DNA of 64,000 nucleotides from Solirubrobacteraceae bacterium (lineage in GTDB: Bacteria > Actinomycetota > Thermoleophilia > Solirubrobacterales > Solirubrobacteraceae): positions 186,001 through 250,000 of the forward strand of contig JAUJOT010000002.1 of the NCBI GenBank assembly GCA_030447505.1, in the 5' to 3' direction. Below, one piece after another: positions 6,140 to 16,104 of this stretch; position 1 is the stretch's first letter, and each line of letters starts with the position of its first letter. The position numbers were made by a program, and so were the translations under genes. Under the pieces are notes generated by a model, which saw nothing but the letters and a program-made list of their open reading frames with translations, did not search any database and had not been told where the DNA came from.

Positions 6140-7024
6140 CTACCAGCCGCGCTGGGCGAGCAACTGGTCGTCGCCGAGCGCACGCGACTCCAGTGAGTCC
6201 ATCGCCGCGCCGAGGCCCTCGGAAGCCTGCGCGATGCGCATCGGATCGGCGAAGTGCGTGCATGCCTCGACGATCGCGCGAGCACGGCGCTCGGGGTTGG
6301 AAGACTTGAAGATCCCGGACCCGACGAACAGGCCCTCGGCGCCGAGCTGCATCATCAGCGACGCGTCGGCGGGCGTCGCGATGCCGCCGGCGCAGAACAG
6401 CACCACCGGCAGGCCGCCCTCGCGGGCGACGCCGCGGACGAGGTCAAGCGGCGCCCCGAGCTCCTTGGCGGCCGTCGGCAGCTCGGTCTCGTCGAGCGTC
6501 CCGAGCCGGCGGATGTCGGAGCGGATCGCGCGCATGTGGCGCACCGCCTCGACGATATCGCCGGTGCCCGCCTCGCCCTTGGAGCGGATCATCGCGGCGC
6601 CCTCGCCGATCCGTCGCAGCGCCTCGCCGAGGTTGGTCGCGCCGCACACGAAGGGGATCGAGAAGTCCCACTTGTCGATGTGGTTGTGCTCGTCGGCGGG
6701 CGTCAGGACCTCGGACTCGTCGATGTAGTCGACCTCGAGCGCCTCGAGCACCTGGGCCTCGGCGATGTGGCCGATGCGCGCCTTCGCCATGACGGGGATC
6801 GTGACCGCGTCCTGGATGCCCTTGATCATCGCGGGGTCAGACATCCGCGCGACGCCGCCATCGCGGCGGATGTCGGAGGGCACGCGCTCGAGCGCCATGA
6901 CGGCGCTCGCGCCGGCGGCCTCGGCGATGCGCGCCTGCTCGGCATCGACGACGTCCATGATGACGCCGCCCTTGAGCATCTCTGCCAGGCCGGCCTTGAC
7001 GCGGAATGTCGCTTCGTCTCGCAC
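6140..7024 (-). CDS. pdxS: Pyridoxal 5'-phosphate synthase lyase subunit PdxS
   Basis: 294 residues. It condenses ribose 5-phosphate, glyceraldehyde 3-phosphate and PdxT-derived ammonia to PLP. Asp24 (VIMDVV), Lys81 (VMAKARIGH) and Lys149 ([10 protein letters not shown]) occupy the numbered positions known from the Bacillus enzyme, supporting the GTG at 7024 as the start. The open frame continues further upstream, but the added residues are not conserved in the family and a -10 box sits at 7033-7038 inside them. First gene of pdxST. Confidence 0.97.
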
Positions 7025-7032
7025 TGAGCGCG

Positions 7033-7038
7033 ATTCTA
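7033..7038 (-). promoter_or_regulatory. -10 box (TAGAAT) of a leaderless pdxS promoter
   Basis: TAGAAT on the minus strand, 8 bases before the pdxS GTG. With the usual 6-8 base distance to the transcription start, the mRNA would begin at the start codon. There is no Shine-Dalgarno sequence in the gap. Confidence 0.55.
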
Positions 7039-7197
7039 CCGGGGCGGCCTGGCAGCCTTGCGCGGCCGCCGCGAGCGTCTCAGGCCGCAGCCGCGTTCGT
7101 GCGCGCGAAAGATGCCGCATGGAGATGTGGGCGCGGGGGGAAATTGTGAACTTCCTTGACATCCTCGTGCCCCGATCCACAGCCACTGCCGCGCCCC

Positions 7198-7935
7198 GTG
7201 CACGTCGTCGTGCTGGCCGCCGGGCGCGGCAGCCGCCTCGGCGCCCTCGGCGAGGGCACGCCGAAGTGGCTGCTGCGCGTCGGCGGCCGCACACTCGCCG
7301 ACCGGCAGCTCGAAGGGTTCGATCGCGCCGCAGGTTCCGTCGCTTCCGTCCGCGTCGTCGTGGGACATGCCCGTCACGCGATCGAGCTGGAGCTCGCGGC
7401 CCGCGCCGATCACGTGGGCGTGGTCGCCAACCCCGAGTTCGCCGAGCTCAACAACTGGTGGTCGCTGTTGCGCGCGCTGCGCGAGCTTCCCGAAGGCGGT
7501 CCCGTCGTGCTGCTGAACGCCGATCTGCTCGCAGAGCCCGAGCACGTCGCGGCGTTCATCGAGGAGGCTGCGGCGGGTCAGGCCGATGGCCTGCTCGCCG
7601 TCGACCTCGTCAAGCAGCTGACGGACGAGTCGATGAAGGTCTCGCTGACGCCGGACGGGACGCTGGCCCGGATCGGCAAGGTCGAGATCGACGATCCCGT
7701 CGGCGAGTACGTCGGCATGCTGATGGTCCGCGCTGTCGCGCTGCGGCGCCTGCGCGCCGTACTGGAGAGCTTCGTCGGGCGCGCCGAGGCTGCCAACGAG
7801 TGGTACGAAGGCGCGGTCGGGCAGACCGCGAGCGCCGGCGTCGCGTGGCACGTCTGGGCGATGGCGCCCGGGGCCTGGGCGGAGATCGACGACGACGCCG
7901 ATCTCGAAGCCGCGCAGTCGATGCGGGCAGCGTGA
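7198..7935 (+). CDS. Sugar-phosphate/CTP-type nucleotidyltransferase
   Basis: 245 residues from GTG at 7198, chosen because it gives the standard N-terminus [15 protein letters not shown]; the frame also offers TTG at 7156. The GRGSRLG...TPKWLL signature binds the nucleotide and VLLNADLL is the metal-binding strand. It resembles the phosphocholine cytidylyltransferase/LicC-like branch that activates small phosphorylated alcohols, including the conserved [14 protein letters not shown] segment seen in that branch. The next gene, overlapping by one base, makes sn-glycerol 1-phosphate, so CDP-activation of glycerol-1-phosphate is a reasonable guess; the true substrate is unproven. Confidence 0.75.
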
Positions 7936-9032
7936 TGGTTGCCCCCCCGCGCACCGTCGAGATCCCGCGGCTGCTGCACGTGAGCGCCGGCTGCCTGCGC
8001 GAGGTGTCTGCGCTGCTTGCCGACCACGACTTCGACCTGGACTGCGTGCTGCTCGGCAGCGGCCCCGGACCATCGCGCATGTTCGCCGAGGGGGTCGTCA
8101 CGGGCCTGCGCGCCGCCGGTGTGCGGGTGCTGCATCTTTCGCACCTGAGCGGACGTCTCGACCAGGCGGCCGCGACCGCGGGCACGATCATCGAAGAGGG
8201 CGTCACGACCGCGGTCGCCGTCGGCGGCGGCCGCGTCATAGACACCGTCAAGCTCGCTGCTGCGCGCACGGGCGTGGACTTCGTGAGCGTCCCGACCGCA
8301 GTCTCCAACGACGGCATCAGCTCGCCCGTCGCATCCCTCGTCGGCAAGGACGGCGCGCGCGCGAGCCACGCCGCGCGGATGCCCTGCGGGATCGTCGTCG
8401 ACATCACCGCGATCGGCAGCGCGCCGGCGACCACGATCCGCGCCGGCGTCGGCGATCTCGTCAGCAATCTCACCGCCTGCCTGGACTGGCGGCTCGCCGA
8501 CCGCCAGGGCTACGAGCAGTACGACGCGTTCGCGGCCATGATCGCCGAGTCGGCCGCGCGGCCGATCCTCGACCTCGAGGAGCTCGACTCCTCCGCCTCC
8601 CACGGCGTCGTCGCGCAGGGGCTCCTGCTCAGTGGCCTCGCGATGGCGGCCGCCGGCACGAGCAGGCCGTGCTCGGGGGCCGAGCACCTGATCTCGCATG
8701 CACTCGACGCACAGCTCGGGTCGCAAGCGGCGCTGCACGGCGAGCAGGTCGCGCTCGGCTGCCTCGTCGCGGCGACGGCGCACGAATGGTCGCAGACCAA
8801 GGAGCTGCTGCGCACGTTCCGGCGCCTCGGGCTCCCGACGTGCCCCGAGGACCTGGGGATGTCGCGCACCCAGATCGTCGAGGCCGTCTGCGCCGCATCA
8901 CAGATGCGGCCGGACCGACGCACCGTCCTCTCCGGGCGCTTCACAGAGCGCGTCGACGTCGAACAGCTCATCCTGCGCGCGTTCGACGACGAGCTGCCCG
9001 CGCCCGGGCGGCTGCCGTCGGCCAGCGCCTAG
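7935..9032 (+). CDS. sn-Glycerol-1-phosphate dehydrogenase-like (AraM/EgsA family)
   Basis: 365 residues; the ATG overlaps the preceding TGA by one base (TGATG). The family reduces dihydroxyacetone phosphate to sn-glycerol 1-phosphate, the stereoisomer used in archaeal lipids and, in Bacillus, for heptaprenylglyceryl phosphate. Seen: the dinucleotide segment VAVGGGRVIDTVK, PTAVSNDGISSPVAS, and metal ligands in GVGDLVSN, GAEHLISHALD and LHGEQVALG. Length fits. Coupling to a nucleotidyltransferase suggests a glycerol-phosphate polymer, glycolipid or capsule precursor rather than a bulk membrane lipid. Related iron/zinc alcohol dehydrogenases cannot be fully excluded. Confidence 0.85.
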   Translation: MVAPPRTVEIPRLLHVSAGCLREVSALLADHDFDLDCVLLGSGPGPSRMFAEGVVTGLRAAGVRVLHLSHLSGRLDQAAATAGTIIEEGVTTAVAVGGGRVIDTVKLAAARTGVDFVSVPTAVSNDGISSPVASLVGKDGARASHAARMPCGIVVDITAIGSAPATTIRAGVGDLVSNLTACLDWRLADRQGYEQYDAFAAMIAESAARPILDLEELDSSASHGVVAQGLLLSGLAMAAAGTSRPCSGAEHLISHALDAQLGSQAALHGEQVALGCLVAATAHEWSQTKELLRTFRRLGLPTCPEDLGMSRTQIVEAVCAASQMRPDRRTVLSGRFTERVDVEQLILRAFDDELPAPGRLPSASA

Positions 9033-9271: not shown

Positions 9272-9919
9272 TCAGGCGACCGCGCGCGATCGGTCGGTGA
9301 GCAGCTTCAGCCCGAACAGTCCCAGGCACGTCCCCATCAGCCACCGCTGCGCCCGGGCGATCGCGGGACGGCGACCCAACACCGCGGCGAGCGAGCCGGC
9401 GGCAATCACGATGATCGCGTTGACCGTGAGCGCGATCGCGATCTGGATCGAGCCGAGCACCAGCGACTGCAAGGCCACGCTGCCCTGGTCGGGCGCTACG
9501 AACTGGGGCAGCAGCGACAGGTAGAGGATGGCGATCTTCGGGTTGAGCAAGTTCGTCAGGAAGCCCATGGCGACGAGCCGCAGCGGCGGGTCCATGGGAA
9601 GCTCGCGCGTCTCGAACAGGGGCGCCGCGCCAGGGCGCAGGACGCTCCACGCCAGGTAGAGGAGGTAGAGCGCGCCGGCGATCTTCAGCGCGGTGTACGC
9701 GGCGGGGACCGCCGCGAAGATCGCGCTGATGCCAAGCACCGCGGTCACCAGGTACACAAGGAACCCGAGGCCGGTTCCGAGCAGCGAGATGATCCCGGCA
9801 CGTGGGCCCTGCGTCAGCGACCGCGAGACCAGGTAGAGCATGTTCGGCCCCGGCGTGAGGACCAGCAGGAGCGCGACGAGCGCGATCCCGGCGGCCGCCG
9901 AGGCGTCGATGACCTGCAC
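9272..9919 (-). CDS. LysE/RhtB-family amino-acid exporter
   Basis: 215 residues from GTG at 9919. That start is chosen over GTG at 9952 because a strong ribosome site (GGGAGGA) stands 7 bases before it and because the protein then begins just before the first membrane helix. The family signature LVLTPGPNMLYLVSRSL is present, followed by LKIAGALYLLYLAW and GFLTNLLNPKIAILYLSLLPQF. About six hydrophobic segments are predicted. It should export an amino acid or similar small metabolite; the substrate is unknown. Confidence 0.9.
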   Translation of the reverse strand: MQVIDASAAAGIALVALLLVLTPGPNMLYLVSRSLTQGPRAGIISLLGTGLGFLVYLVTAVLGISAIFAAVPAAYTALKIAGALYLLYLAWSVLRPGAAPLFETRELPMDPPLRLVAMGFLTNLLNPKIAILYLSLLPQFVAPDQGSVALQSLVLGSIQIAIALTVNAIIVIAAGSLAAVLGRRPAIARAQRWLMGTCLGLFGLKLLTDRSRAVA

Positions 9920-9926
9920 GCGCCGA

Positions 9927-9933
9927 TCCTCCC
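9927..9933 (-). promoter_or_regulatory. Shine-Dalgarno GGGAGGA deciding the LysE start
   Basis: Near-perfect anti-16S complement 7 bases before the GTG at 9919. It falls inside the longer frame starting at 9952, which argues for the shorter protein. Confidence 0.7.
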
Positions 9934-10112
9934 ACAACGCCGGTCGTGTCACGAGCGCTCGGCAGCAATGACCGACAGCACACGCACAACGATGCGAGGC
10001 AGCCGAACGGCGCGCTGAGCGGCGGTGGGTCCGACCGAGATCGCATTTGTAGGTTCCCGCTCTTCAGTGCGCGGCGTGCCGCTCCGGGCCCGTCACGCCG
10101 GGTGCGCGTCGC

Positions 10113-14179: not shown

Positions 14180-14253
14180 GGGGCAGTAGCTCAGTTGGTC
14201 AGAGCAGCCGACTCATAATCGGTTAGACGGAGGTTCGAGTCCTCCCTGCCCCA
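14180..14253 (+). tRNA. tRNA with CAU anticodon (elongator Met, possibly Ile2)
   Basis: 74 bases. Acceptor GGGGCAG/CTGCCCC with discriminator A, D-stem GCTC/GAGC, anticodon stem GCCGA/TCGGT with loop CTCATAA, variable loop TAGAC, T-stem GGAGG/CCTCC with loop TTCGAGT. CCA is not encoded. CAU reads Met, or Ile (AUA) if the C is converted to lysidine; the acceptor stem does not let me decide. The antisense strand forms the 3' end of the neighbouring NAD-salvage gene. Confidence 0.95.
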
Positions 14254-16104
14254 TCCGGTCGCGACCTGTGCCCCGGCGGCGACCATCTCGTCGAGCGCGC
14301 GGCGCCCGTCTCCGTCCTCGACGTCGACCGCGGCGACCGCATCGGCGAGCACCGTCGTCCGAAAGCCGGCGGCGAGCGCATCGAGCACGGTCGCCTTGAC
14401 GCAGTAGTCCGTCGCCAGGCCGCCGACGAGGACGTGCGTGACGCCGGCGTCCTGCAGCAGCCGGGCGAGCTGCGTGCCGTCGAAGCCCGAGTAGGCGTCC
14501 GCGTCCTGCGTCGTCGCCTTCTCGACGAGCGGCCCGTCGAGCGCGGCGATCGCCGGGTGAAGCTCGGCGCCGTGCGTCCCTGCGACGCAGTGCACCGGCC
14601 AGATCCCGCCCTGCTCTGTGAACGAGCAGTGCTCGACGGTGTGTGCGTCGCGCGTCTTGACGACGAGACCGGCGGCGCCGGCGGCGCGTACCAGCGGCTC
14701 GACGACGGCGTCGCCGCCGGGCACGCCGAGCGCGCCTCCGGGGAGAAAGTCGTGCTGGACGTCGACGGCGATGAGGGCCGTCGCGGAGATGCTGGACCGA
14801 TCTCCTCGGAGCTCTGCGGTCAGGCGCGCGCGCAGCGCGAGCAGGCCGGGCGAGCGGACGAGCTCGGCCGCGCCGTCGCTGCCGATCCGCGCGCGCTCGC
14901 GGGCGGCGTGCGCCCGATCGGCTTCGAGGTCGGGGGCGTTGCGCGTGCGCGCGCCGTCGCGCATCACCTCGACCAGCAGGGCGGTCGCCGACAGCTCTTC
15001 GTCGGCGAGGTGCAGGACGTGCGTCCCGTCCGCGCGGCGCGTGACCTGATGCGCACCGGGGTCGGTCTCCTTGCCCGGCGAGAGCTTCATCGTGTAGCGC
15101 AGCGCGACGTCGTCCTGCTCGGGCTGCTCGACGAGCTTGTAGACGGCGCCGATCGCCTCGCCGCTGCGCAGGCGCGTGCCGACGCCGAACGCTGCGACGG
15201 GAACGCCGCGGTCGACGAGTGCGCCGATCTGCGCCGCGTCGAGGTCGCCGCTGAGGATGATCGCGGTGTCCGTCAGGCCCGCCTCGTCGAGCAGATCGCG
15301 GGCGGTCGTCGCGAGCGCGGCGTGGTCGCCGGAGTCGATCCGGATCGCCTTCAGGCGCGCGCCCGTCAGCCGCTGCGCGGCGATCGCCTTGTGCAGGCCC
15401 TCGATCGGGTCGTACGTGTCGACGAGCAGGGTCGCGCCCGCCGCCCGCGACCGGAGCTGATCGCAGAAGACGTCGAGCTCGCCCGCGCGGCCGCGGGCCA
15501 TCACCTTCGCGTGCGCCATCGTCCCGGTCGCCGGGACGCGGAGGTCGCGCGCGGCGGCCGCCGTCGCGGTTCCCGCAAAGCCGGCGAGGTACGCCGCGCG
15601 GGCGGCGGTGTGCCCCGCGCCGAGGCCGTCGAGGCGGCGCATCGAGAAGTCCCAGACGGGGCGCCCGCGCGCCGCCCGCACGATCGCCGTCGCGTTCGTC
15701 GCGACGCGGACGGCGTAGTTGATCGCCGCCAGCATCGGCGTCTCGACGAGCGTCGCCTCGAGCCGAGTCGCGGTGATGCGCAGCAGCGGCGTTCCGGCGG
15801 GCACGATCGTGCCTTCGCGCGGAGCCCAGACGCTGCCGCCGAAGCGCAGGTCGCGCAGGCGATCGAGCACCGGCGCGTCGAACGTCACGGGGTCCTGCTC
15901 GGCGAGCCAGCACAGGTCGTCGTGGATGAAGCGCATGCGCTCGAGGAACGCGAGCGCCTCCTCCACCCCGGCCACCGTCATCGCGCCCGCGCCGCGCGCC
16001 GCGAGCTCGAAGGTGGCGAGATCGTCGGCCGTGCCTTCGTGCACGTAGTCGGCGGCCATCGTCAGGCAGTAGAGGTCGGTCAGGAGCGCGTCGTTCGGGG
16101 TCAT
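14191..16104 (-). CDS. Fused nicotinate phosphoribosyltransferase-nicotinamidase
   Basis: 637 residues from ATG at 16104. Residues 1 to about 430 are nicotinate phosphoribosyltransferase (LLTDLYCLTMAADYV, ATNATAIVRAARGRPVWDFSMRR, TMAHAKVMA, LLVDTYDP, IRIDSGDHAAL, GVGTRL). Residues about 445-615 are a nicotinamidase/isochorismatase domain (ALIAVDVQHDFLPGG with catalytic Asp, VKTRDAHTVEHCSF, WPVHCVAGTHGAELH, GLATDYCVKATVLDAL with catalytic Cys). The chain therefore deamidates nicotinamide and attaches phosphoribose, two consecutive NAD-salvage steps normally made by separate proteins. The last 19 or so residues are translated from the antisense strand of the tRNA gene. Confidence 0.92.
   Translation of the reverse strand: MTPNDALLTDLYCLTMAADYVHEGTADDLATFELAARGAGAMTVAGVEEALAFLERMRFIHDDLCWLAEQDPVTFDAPVLDRLRDLRFGGSVWAPREGTIVPAGTPLLRITATRLEATLVETPMLAAINYAVRVATNATAIVRAARGRPVWDFSMRRLDGLGAGHTAARAAYLAGFAGTATAAAARDLRVPATGTMAHAKVMARGRAGELDVFCDQLRSRAAGATLLVDTYDPIEGLHKAIAAQRLTGARLKAIRIDSGDHAALATTARDLLDEAGLTDTAIILSGDLDAAQIGALVDRGVPVAAFGVGTRLRSGEAIGAVYKLVEQPEQDDVALRYTMKLSPGKETDPGAHQVTRRADGTHVLHLADEELSATALLVEVMRDGARTRNAPDLEADRAHAARERARIGSDGAAELVRSPGLLALRARLTAELRGDRSSISATALIAVDVQHDFLPGGALGVPGGDAVVEPLVRAAGAAGLVVKTRDAHTVEHCSFTEQGGIWPVHCVAGTHGAELHPAIAALDGPLVEKATTQDADAYSGFDGTQLARLLQDAGVTHVLVGGLATDYCVKATVLDALAAGFRTTVLADAVAAVDVEDGDGRRALDEMVAAGAQVATGWGREDSNLRLTDYESAALTN

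What the first reader, a model, noticed from the sequence alone, without database searches (positions are those of the whole stretch)
7198..9032. Nucleotidyltransferase coupled to a bacterial sn-glycerol-1-phosphate dehydrogenase
The two genes overlap by one base (TGATG). One belongs to the LicC/phosphocholine cytidylyltransferase-like branch, the other to the AraM/EgsA family, which makes the archaeal stereoisomer of glycerol phosphate. Together they could make a CDP- or other NDP-activated glycerol 1-phosphate, which would be an unusual precursor for an actinobacterial polymer, capsule or lipid. No glycosyl or phosphoglycerol transferase is adjacent, so the end product is unknown.
Basis: partly seen in the sequence, partly recalled or inferred. 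Interest (0 to 1): 0.6.

Follow-up and report, generated by a model that had tools for sequence, protein, structure and literature searches.

The report
Candidate CDP-glycerol-1-phosphate gene pair in actinobacteria
Two coupled genes in a soil-type actinobacterium most likely make an activated form of mirror-image (archaeal-type) glycerol phosphate for building a teichoic-acid-like molecule, a precursor that a 2021 paper judged likely absent from bacteria.

Summary
In detail: an NTP-transferase gene (7198-7935 +) runs by a one-base TGATG overlap into a dehydrogenase gene (7935-9032 +). By sequence and predicted structure the dehydrogenase groups with archaeal and AraM sn-glycerol-1-phosphate (G1P) dehydrogenases, and the transferase with cytidylyltransferases of phospho-alcohols (LicC, PntC, IPCT). 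The missing transferase can be found in relatives. Seven of nine close homologues sit directly beside a TagF/TarF-like CDP-glycerol glycerophosphotransferase (PF04464), and the window's own genome has one TagF-like gene about 100 kb away. The same trio recurs in Nocardioidaceae, Clostridia, Peptococcaceae and Bacteroidales. Across 396 Actinomycetota genomes, TagF-bearing genomes have either this dehydrogenase (18) or the classical G3P cytidylyltransferase TagD (6), never both; 9 have neither. Best reading: DHAP -> G1P -> CDP-1-glycerol -> TagF-like transferase, replacing TagD. No enzyme activity is shown. The main rival is CDP-2-glycerol, as reported for pneumococcal Gtp1-3, whose gene order matches the clostridial locus. 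The pair itself is common: a Streptomyces version lies in an uncharacterised DUF5941/CDP-alcohol transferase/ABC module. I rate this a new variant of a known kind, directly testable with, for example, the Patulibacter americanus proteins.

The parts
7198..7935 (+). LicC/PntC/IPCT-like nucleotidyltransferase (P0001, 245 aa, GTG start; predicted CTP:glycerol-1-phosphate cytidylyltransferase)
   Evidence: PF12804; profile hits LicC 1jyk 2.9e-22, PntC 6pd1, IPCT 4jd0/2xme; AF2 pLDDT 95.4; VIA Z 29.1 PntC, 28.0 LicC; L-A-A-G-x-G-x-R, PK, N-D, MK and EID motifs conserved
7935..9032 (+). EgsA-like iron-ADH family dehydrogenase (P0002, 365 aa; predicted sn-glycerol-1-phosphate dehydrogenase)
   Evidence: PF13685; NF002022 G1PDH 259 bits (below its cut-off 413), next family 64 bits; VIA Z 42.9/42.3 to archaeal G1PDH, 39.8 AraM, 36.2 glycerol dehydrogenase
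7933..7937 (+). TGATG stop-start overlap coupling the two genes
   Evidence: a close or overlapping NT-DH junction is also seen in L163, L167, L168, L169
8454..8456 (+). codon of Asp174, predicted metal ligand
   Evidence: invariant in A1 and A4; aligned with the Asp of M. jannaschii G1PDH; role from knowledge of the fold
8685..8687 (+). codon of His251 (SRPCSGAEH motif), predicted metal ligand
   Evidence: invariant in A1 and A4; motif shared with archaeal enzymes
8736..8738 (+). codon of His268 (LHGEQ motif), predicted metal ligand
   Evidence: invariant in A1 and A4

Best explanation
The pair is a two-step module making CDP-activated glycerol with sn-1 stereochemistry. Step 1 (inferred): P0002 reduces DHAP with NAD(P)H to sn-glycerol-1-phosphate, using a metal held by Asp174, His251 and His268. 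Step 2 (inferred): P0001 transfers CMP from CTP to G1P, giving CDP-1-glycerol and pyrophosphate. Step 3 (inferred from gene linkage): a TagF/TarF-like glycerophosphotransferase moves the glycerol phosphate onto a glycan, polyol or growing chain. In relatives that gene is next to the pair; in the window's genome the only copy is coupled to a glycosyltransferase gene about 100 kb away on the same contig. The module stands in for TagD, which makes CDP-3-glycerol elsewhere. The separate enantiomer would keep polymer synthesis apart from the G3P pool used for phospholipids (GpsA-type genes are present). In other lineages the same pair feeds CDP-alcohol phosphotransferase family enzymes instead.
For: Shown: the pair and its coupling. 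DH closest to archaeal G1PDH by NCBIfam, PDB sequence and predicted structure, with the archaeal active-site motifs S[NH]DGI.SP, GD, SRP.SG.EH, LHGE, RPDR.T.L. NT closest to phospho-alcohol cytidylyltransferases, 2-3 Z units above sugar-1-phosphate transferases. TagF-like gene adjacent in 7 of 9 close homologues, in two arrangements: convergent with DH in five, divergent from NT in two. All 14 family genomes with a strong PF04464 gene have the DH, against 30 of 146 overall (Fisher 1.2e-11; by genus 4.6e-4). TagF neighbour is TarF-like (glycerol) 258 bits against TarL (ribitol) 81 bits and keeps both invariant His. No TagD over cut-off in 146 family genomes. In the phylum TagF+ genomes are DH+ 18, TagD+ 6, both 0, neither 9. 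Trio also in L188, L190, L217, L220 of other families and phyla. GpsA-type genes in own genome.
Against: No activity is shown. In the window's genome the TagF-like gene is not linked to the pair. In G410 and G411 the TagF gene cluster has no pair beside it. Most pairs elsewhere have no TagF nearby (9 of 64 bacterial loci within 6 kb), so the activated product may serve several ends or differ between clades. NF002022 is matched below its curated cut-off. Nine TagF+ genomes have neither DH nor TagD, so other routes to CDP-glycerol exist. Genome counts are not phylogenetically independent. Pneumococcal Gtp1-Gtp2-Gtp3, with the same gene order as L220, is reported to make CDP-2-glycerol (from memory; not held).
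Confidence: 0.57

Rival explanations
1. CDP-2-glycerol route, as reported for pneumococcal Gtp1-3: the dehydrogenase reduces unphosphorylated dihydroxyacetone to glycerol, another enzyme makes glycerol 2-phosphate, and the transferase makes CDP-2-glycerol for the TagF-like enzyme.
For: The cps23F locus is annotated wchX (glycerol phosphotransferase), gtp1 (dehydrogenase), gtp2 (nucleotidyltransferase), gtp3 (phosphotransferase); clostridial L220 has the order TagF-DH-NT-HAD. An HAD-family gene also lies in the Solirubrobacterales TagF clusters.
Against: The HADs next to the pair in L220 and L190 are HAD-IIA (Hydrolase_6), while those in Solirubrobacterales are HAD-IA and lie beyond another gene. 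The Solirubrobacterales-type HAD has no match near the window's pair. The DH keeps archaeal DHAP-reductase motifs, so direct G1P formation needs no third enzyme. Sequence homology of gtp1/gtp2 to this pair was not tested.
Confidence: 0.18
2. The transferase activates another alcohol or polyol phosphate (for example a mannitol, arabinitol or inositol phosphate), and the dehydrogenase acts on a different ketose phosphate, for a polyol-phosphate polymer or a compatible solute.
For: TagF clusters of relatives hold a Mannitol_dh-family gene and an HAD sugar-phosphatase-like gene; IPCT is among the structural neighbours of the transferase.
Against: The window's genome has no Mannitol_dh yet has the pair and a TagF gene. 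The DH is far closer to G1PDH than to other polyol dehydrogenases. The TagF neighbour is TarF-like rather than TarL-like.
Confidence: 0.13
3. The dehydrogenase supplies G1P for an archaeal-type ether lipid (as AraM does with PcrB in Bacillus), and the transferase activates an unrelated substrate.
For: Bacterial AraM is a G1P dehydrogenase feeding heptaprenylglyceryl phosphate (PMC4244643).
Against: The NT-DH pairing is conserved in bacteria (47 of 64) and absent from archaeal lipid-type loci (0 of 16), and main clades recur in the two trees, so the two proteins share a pathway. No prenyl-glyceryl-phosphate synthase was seen beside the pair (genome-wide absence not tested).
Confidence: 0.07
4. 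The transferase activates a hexose 1-phosphate and the pairing with the dehydrogenase is incidental.
For: Weak NCBIfam matches to sugar-1-phosphate transferases.
Against: Top profile and fold matches are phospho-alcohol cytidylyltransferases; the pairing is conserved across phyla.
Confidence: 0.05

Closest known systems
TagD/TagF (TarD/TarF) poly(glycerol phosphate) wall teichoic acid pathway
   Same: CDP-glycerol donor and a PF04464 transferase; the TagF-like neighbour in relatives is TarF-like
   Different: TagD is replaced by a protein of an unrelated family (LicC-type fold), and the glycerol phosphate would come from a G1P rather than a G3P dehydrogenase; no TagD over cut-off in the family
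Pneumococcal Gtp1-Gtp2-Gtp3 and WchX (CDP-2-glycerol, serotypes 15 and 23F)
   Same: dehydrogenase, nucleotidyltransferase and glycerol phosphotransferase genes together, in the same order as clostridial L220
   Different: reported product is CDP-2-glycerol and needs a third enzyme (from memory); no partner gene of that kind was found beside the window's pair; sequence homology not tested
Archaeal EgsA and Bacillus AraM sn-glycerol-1-phosphate dehydrogenases
   Same: fold, metal ligands and active-site motifs of P0002
   Different: those serve ether lipids; no transferase gene lies beside the archaeal ones (0 of 16 loci)
LicC, PntC and IPCT cytidylyltransferases
   Same: predicted fold of P0001 and closest sequence profile
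   Different: 18-22% identity; substrates are phosphocholine, phosphonate and inositol 1-phosphate, and the partner genes differ
Archaeoglobus glycerophosphoinositol pathway (unidentified G1P-preferring cytidylyltransferase activity, cited in PMC8262930)
   Same: predicted product CDP-1-glycerol
   Different: gene unidentified according to that paper; here a candidate bacterial family with other partners
Streptomyces DUF5941-CCT-FeADH-CDP-OH_P-GT-ABC module
   Same: homologous NT-DH pair
   Different: transferase is of the CDP-alcohol phosphotransferase family; uncharacterised; no paper found

Membership tests
sn-glycerol-1-phosphate dehydrogenase (EgsA/AraM) | Fe-ADH_2/DHQS-like fold, structurally closer to solved G1PDHs than to glycerol dehydrogenases | tested here: met
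   Z 42.9, 42.3 (archaeal), 39.8 (AraM) against 36.2; the top hit 3ce9 (45.4) carries an untested structural-genomics name
sn-glycerol-1-phosphate dehydrogenase (EgsA/AraM) | metal ligands Asp, His, His and archaeal active-site motifs | tested here: met
sn-glycerol-1-phosphate dehydrogenase (EgsA/AraM) | score over the curated NF002022 cut-off (413 bits) | tested here: not met
   259 bits; trio homologues 277-281. It is therefore not claimed as a curated equivalog of that archaeal family, only as a divergent relative that probably works like one
sn-glycerol-1-phosphate dehydrogenase (EgsA/AraM) | reduces DHAP to G1P | not testable with these tools
   needs purified enzyme
LicC/PntC/IPCT-type CTP:phospho-alcohol cytidylyltransferase | nucleotidyltransferase fold with closest match to this group | tested here: met
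LicC/PntC/IPCT-type CTP:phospho-alcohol cytidylyltransferase | uses CTP and a phosphorylated alcohol | not testable with these tools
   needs assay
Classical TagD/TarD pathway | TagD (TIGR01518) present | tested here: not met
   none over cut-off in the family; best own-genome hit 42.7 bits against 165.4
Classical TagD/TarD pathway | TagF/TarF-like glycerophosphotransferase in the genome | tested here: met
   one PF04464 gene, 310 bits, G000:C7:91532-92587
Pneumococcal Gtp1-3 cassette | third gene (Gtp3 phosphotransferase) beside the pair | tested here: inconclusive
   the Solirubrobacterales-type HAD gene finds no match in the window; the HAD-IIA type of L220/L190 was not searched there, and Gtp3's own family could not be checked

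The most novel reading that the evidence does not exclude
Bacteria have a dedicated CDP-1-glycerol pathway (EgsA-like dehydrogenase plus LicC-like cytidylyltransferase) that replaces TagD and builds teichoic-acid-like polymers of archaeal-handed glycerol phosphate, recruited separately with TagF-like enzymes in several phyla and with CDP-alcohol phosphotransferases in Streptomyces and others.
Probability: 0.45. Interest if true: 0.78.

Novelty: new variant of a known kind. Interest (0 to 1): 0.6.

Why it matters
A 2021 paper on TagF-like polymerases states that CDP-1-glycerol is likely absent from bacteria (PMC8262930). If this module makes it, bacteria have a soluble cytoplasmic donor for archaeal-handed glycerol phosphate. 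A second origin of CDP-glycerol, unrelated to TagD, would be defined, along with a use of bacterial G1P dehydrogenases other than ether lipids. It would also give a testable role to a conserved uncharacterised operon of Streptomyces and offer an enantiopure enzyme source for making glycerol-phosphate polymers.

Tried and rejected
Linkage in the window itself: nothing found. TagD anywhere in the family: none over cut-off. Mannitol_dh as the source of the substrate: absent from the own genome. Defence-system library: no hits. Papers on DUF5941, the CCT/FeADH/CDP-OH_P combination and CDP-1-glycerol: none held. Rodrigues 2017 and Han & Ishikawa 2005 are not held, so their content rests on citations in other papers. 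Promoter and terminator scans were empty. Sugar-1-phosphate transferase as the role of P0001: disfavoured by profile and fold ranking.

Full report
WHAT IS THERE. The window (G000:C7:186001-250000 of a 3.84 Mb, 13-contig assembly) holds a GTG-started gene for a 245-residue NTP-transferase at 7198-7935 (+) and a 365-residue iron-ADH family protein at 7935-9032 (+). The TGA stop and ATG start share one base. Upstream, divergent, is a pdxS-like gene (SOR_SNZ, within 6140-7294 -); downstream is a convergent LysE-type exporter gene at 9272-9952 (-). Neither was noted as a partner of the pair in relatives, and I regard them as unrelated. No TagF-like gene, and none of the partner genes found in Solirubrobacterales relatives, lies in the 64 kb.

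THE DEHYDROGENASE. P0002 matches Pfam Fe-ADH_2 and, among NCBIfam models, the archaeal G1P dehydrogenase NF002022 at 259 bits. The next family, glycerol dehydrogenase, scores 64. It is below the curated cut-off of 413, so it is a divergent relative and not a curated equivalog. By sequence the PDB relatives are 3ce9 (an unassayed 'glycerol dehydrogenase'), then Methanocaldococcus and Pyrobaculum G1PDH, then AraM 9h4x. An AlphaFold model (pLDDT 93) aligns best with 3ce9 (Z 45.4), archaeal G1PDH (42.9, 42.3) and AraM (39.8), ahead of glycerol dehydrogenase (36.2). Asp174, His251 and His268, and the motifs GGGR.ID, S[NH]DGI[SA]SP, GD, SRP.SG.EH, LHGE and RPDR.T.L, are shared with archaeal enzymes. 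That these three residues bind the metal follows from established knowledge of the fold.

THE TRANSFERASE. P0001 is a MobA/IspD-like NTP transferase. A profile of its orthologues picks out LicC (2.9e-22), PntC, and the inositol-1-phosphate cytidylyltransferases 4jd0 and 2xme before any sugar-1-phosphate enzyme. Its AlphaFold model (pLDDT 95.4) aligns best with PntC (Z 29.1) and LicC (28.0). GlmU and IPCT follow at about 25.9. This favours CTP and a phosphorylated alcohol; the substrate itself cannot be read from the fold.

THE PAIR IS CONSERVED. In 396 Actinomycetota genomes 44 have the dehydrogenase at E <= 1e-25. In 80 named loci from the genome collection, a transferase gene lies within 150 bp in 47 of 64 bacterial loci and in none of 16 archaeal ones. 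Main clades recur in both trees: Solirubrobacterales with their Thermoleophilia/Euzebya sisters, a Firmicutes/Bacteroidales group, and a Streptomyces/Nitriliruptor group.

THE PARTNERS. In the close subfamily (nine genomes, DH identity 70% or more), a PF04464 gene is directly beside the pair in seven. It is convergent with DH in L139, L140, L141, L142 and L144, and divergent from NT in L060 and L143. Two arrangements keeping the same neighbour argue for a functional link. The gene in Patulibacter americanus is TarF-like (258 bits) rather than TarL-like (81), and the catalytic-type histidines H97 and H229 are invariant in twelve such proteins. The other two of the nine, the window's genome and G381, each carry a single PF04464 gene elsewhere, in both cases directly downstream of a GT1/GT4-family glycosyltransferase gene (48% identical to the neighbour type; in the window's genome start and stop overlap). 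The window-genome copy is at C7:91532-92587, about 100 kb from the pair. Outside this family the trio recurs in Nocardioidaceae (L188), Peptococcaceae (L217), Clostridia (L220) and Bacteroidales (L190), each confirmed with Pfam, in polysaccharide gene surroundings for the last three. In Streptomyces and Nitriliruptor relatives the transferase is instead of the CDP-OH_P family, within a DUF5941-NT-DH-CDP-OH_P-GT2-ABC module. One locus (L051) has both kinds.

DISTRIBUTION TEST. In 146 genomes of the family, all 14 with a strong PF04464 match have the dehydrogenase, against 30 of 146 overall (Fisher 1.2e-11; by genus 9 of 9 against 13 of 25, 4.6e-4). No genome has a TagD match over the cut-off; the best is 48.9 bits against 165.4, while the control finds TagD in Bacillus. 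In the 396 phylum genomes, the 33 with PF04464 divide into 18 with the dehydrogenase, 6 with TagD, none with both and 9 with neither. Dehydrogenase and TagD never co-occur. By genus the split is 8, 6, 0 and 5. The genomes are not independent, so the p-values are indicative; the mutual exclusion is what a replacement would produce.

INTERPRETATION. Both transferase families found with the pair use CDP-alcohols or act on them. The dehydrogenase resembles enzymes making glycerol phosphate, and the transferase resembles enzymes making CDP-alcohols. The common denominator is CDP-glycerol, and with an EgsA-like enzyme the expected stereoisomer is sn-1. The own genome also has GpsA-type genes, so G3P has its own source. 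I put about 0.75 on CDP-glycerol of some kind and 0.57 on the full sn-1 statement. PMC8262930 states that free Gro1P is absent from most bacteria and that CDP-1-Gro is likely absent, and notes an unidentified G1P-preferring activity in Archaeoglobus. The present family is a candidate for such an activity.

MAIN RIVAL. In pneumococcal cps23F the genes wchX, gtp1 (dehydrogenase), gtp2 (nucleotidyltransferase) and gtp3 lie in that order (PMC3493582), as TagF-DH-NT-HAD do in L220. From memory, Wang et al. 2010 reported CDP-2-glycerol as the product, with Gtp1 acting on dihydroxyacetone. The source was not held and homology to this pair was not tested. If P0002 works like Gtp1, the product here would be achiral CDP-2-glycerol. 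No third gene of the Solirubrobacterales HAD type lies beside the window's pair, and that HAD is of another subfamily than the one in L220 and L190.

UNEXPLAINED. The TagF clusters of relatives also carry a Mannitol_dh-family gene, an HAD gene and a glycerophosphodiesterase gene. The own genome lacks Mannitol_dh. The single-domain size of these TagF-like proteins (about 360 residues) would fit a primase or a small-acceptor transferase as well as a polymerase. The end product is therefore still unknown.

Noticed in passing
L139, L140, L141, L143, L144, L147, L149, L166, L168: In Solirubrobacterales the TagF-like gene travels with a Mannitol_dh-family gene, an HAD phosphatase-like gene and often a glycerophosphodiesterase; in G410 and G411 (L147, L149) this cluster stands without the pair.
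   Followed up: partly
L069, L158, L215 and others: Streptomyces module DUF5941 - CCT family - FeADH - CDP-OH_P transferase - GT2 - ABC permease - ABC ATPase, next to hpnCDE in L069 and L158 (hopanoid-type squalene genes); no paper found.
   Followed up: partly
L073-L078 (family f8): NT-DH pair followed in several loci by a type I phosphodiesterase/nucleotide pyrophosphatase (PF01663) gene, with neither TagF nor a CDP-OH_P gene directly beside the pair: a third kind of partner.
   Followed up: no
L174, L176, L178, L179, L185, L193: NT-DH pairs in Spirochaetes, WOR-3/Stahlbacteria and Patescibacteria MAGs, some with CDP-OH_P-like genes nearby.
   Followed up: no
window 14191-16104 (-): Nicotinate phosphoribosyltransferase fused to an isochorismatase/nicotinamidase domain in one 637-residue frame: two successive NAD salvage steps in one protein.
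   Followed up: no
PDB 3ce9 (Clostridium acetobutylicum): Structural-genomics 'glycerol dehydrogenase' is the closest solved relative of P0002 (Z 45.4) and groups with G1P dehydrogenases rather than glycerol dehydrogenases; the label may be wrong.
   Followed up: no
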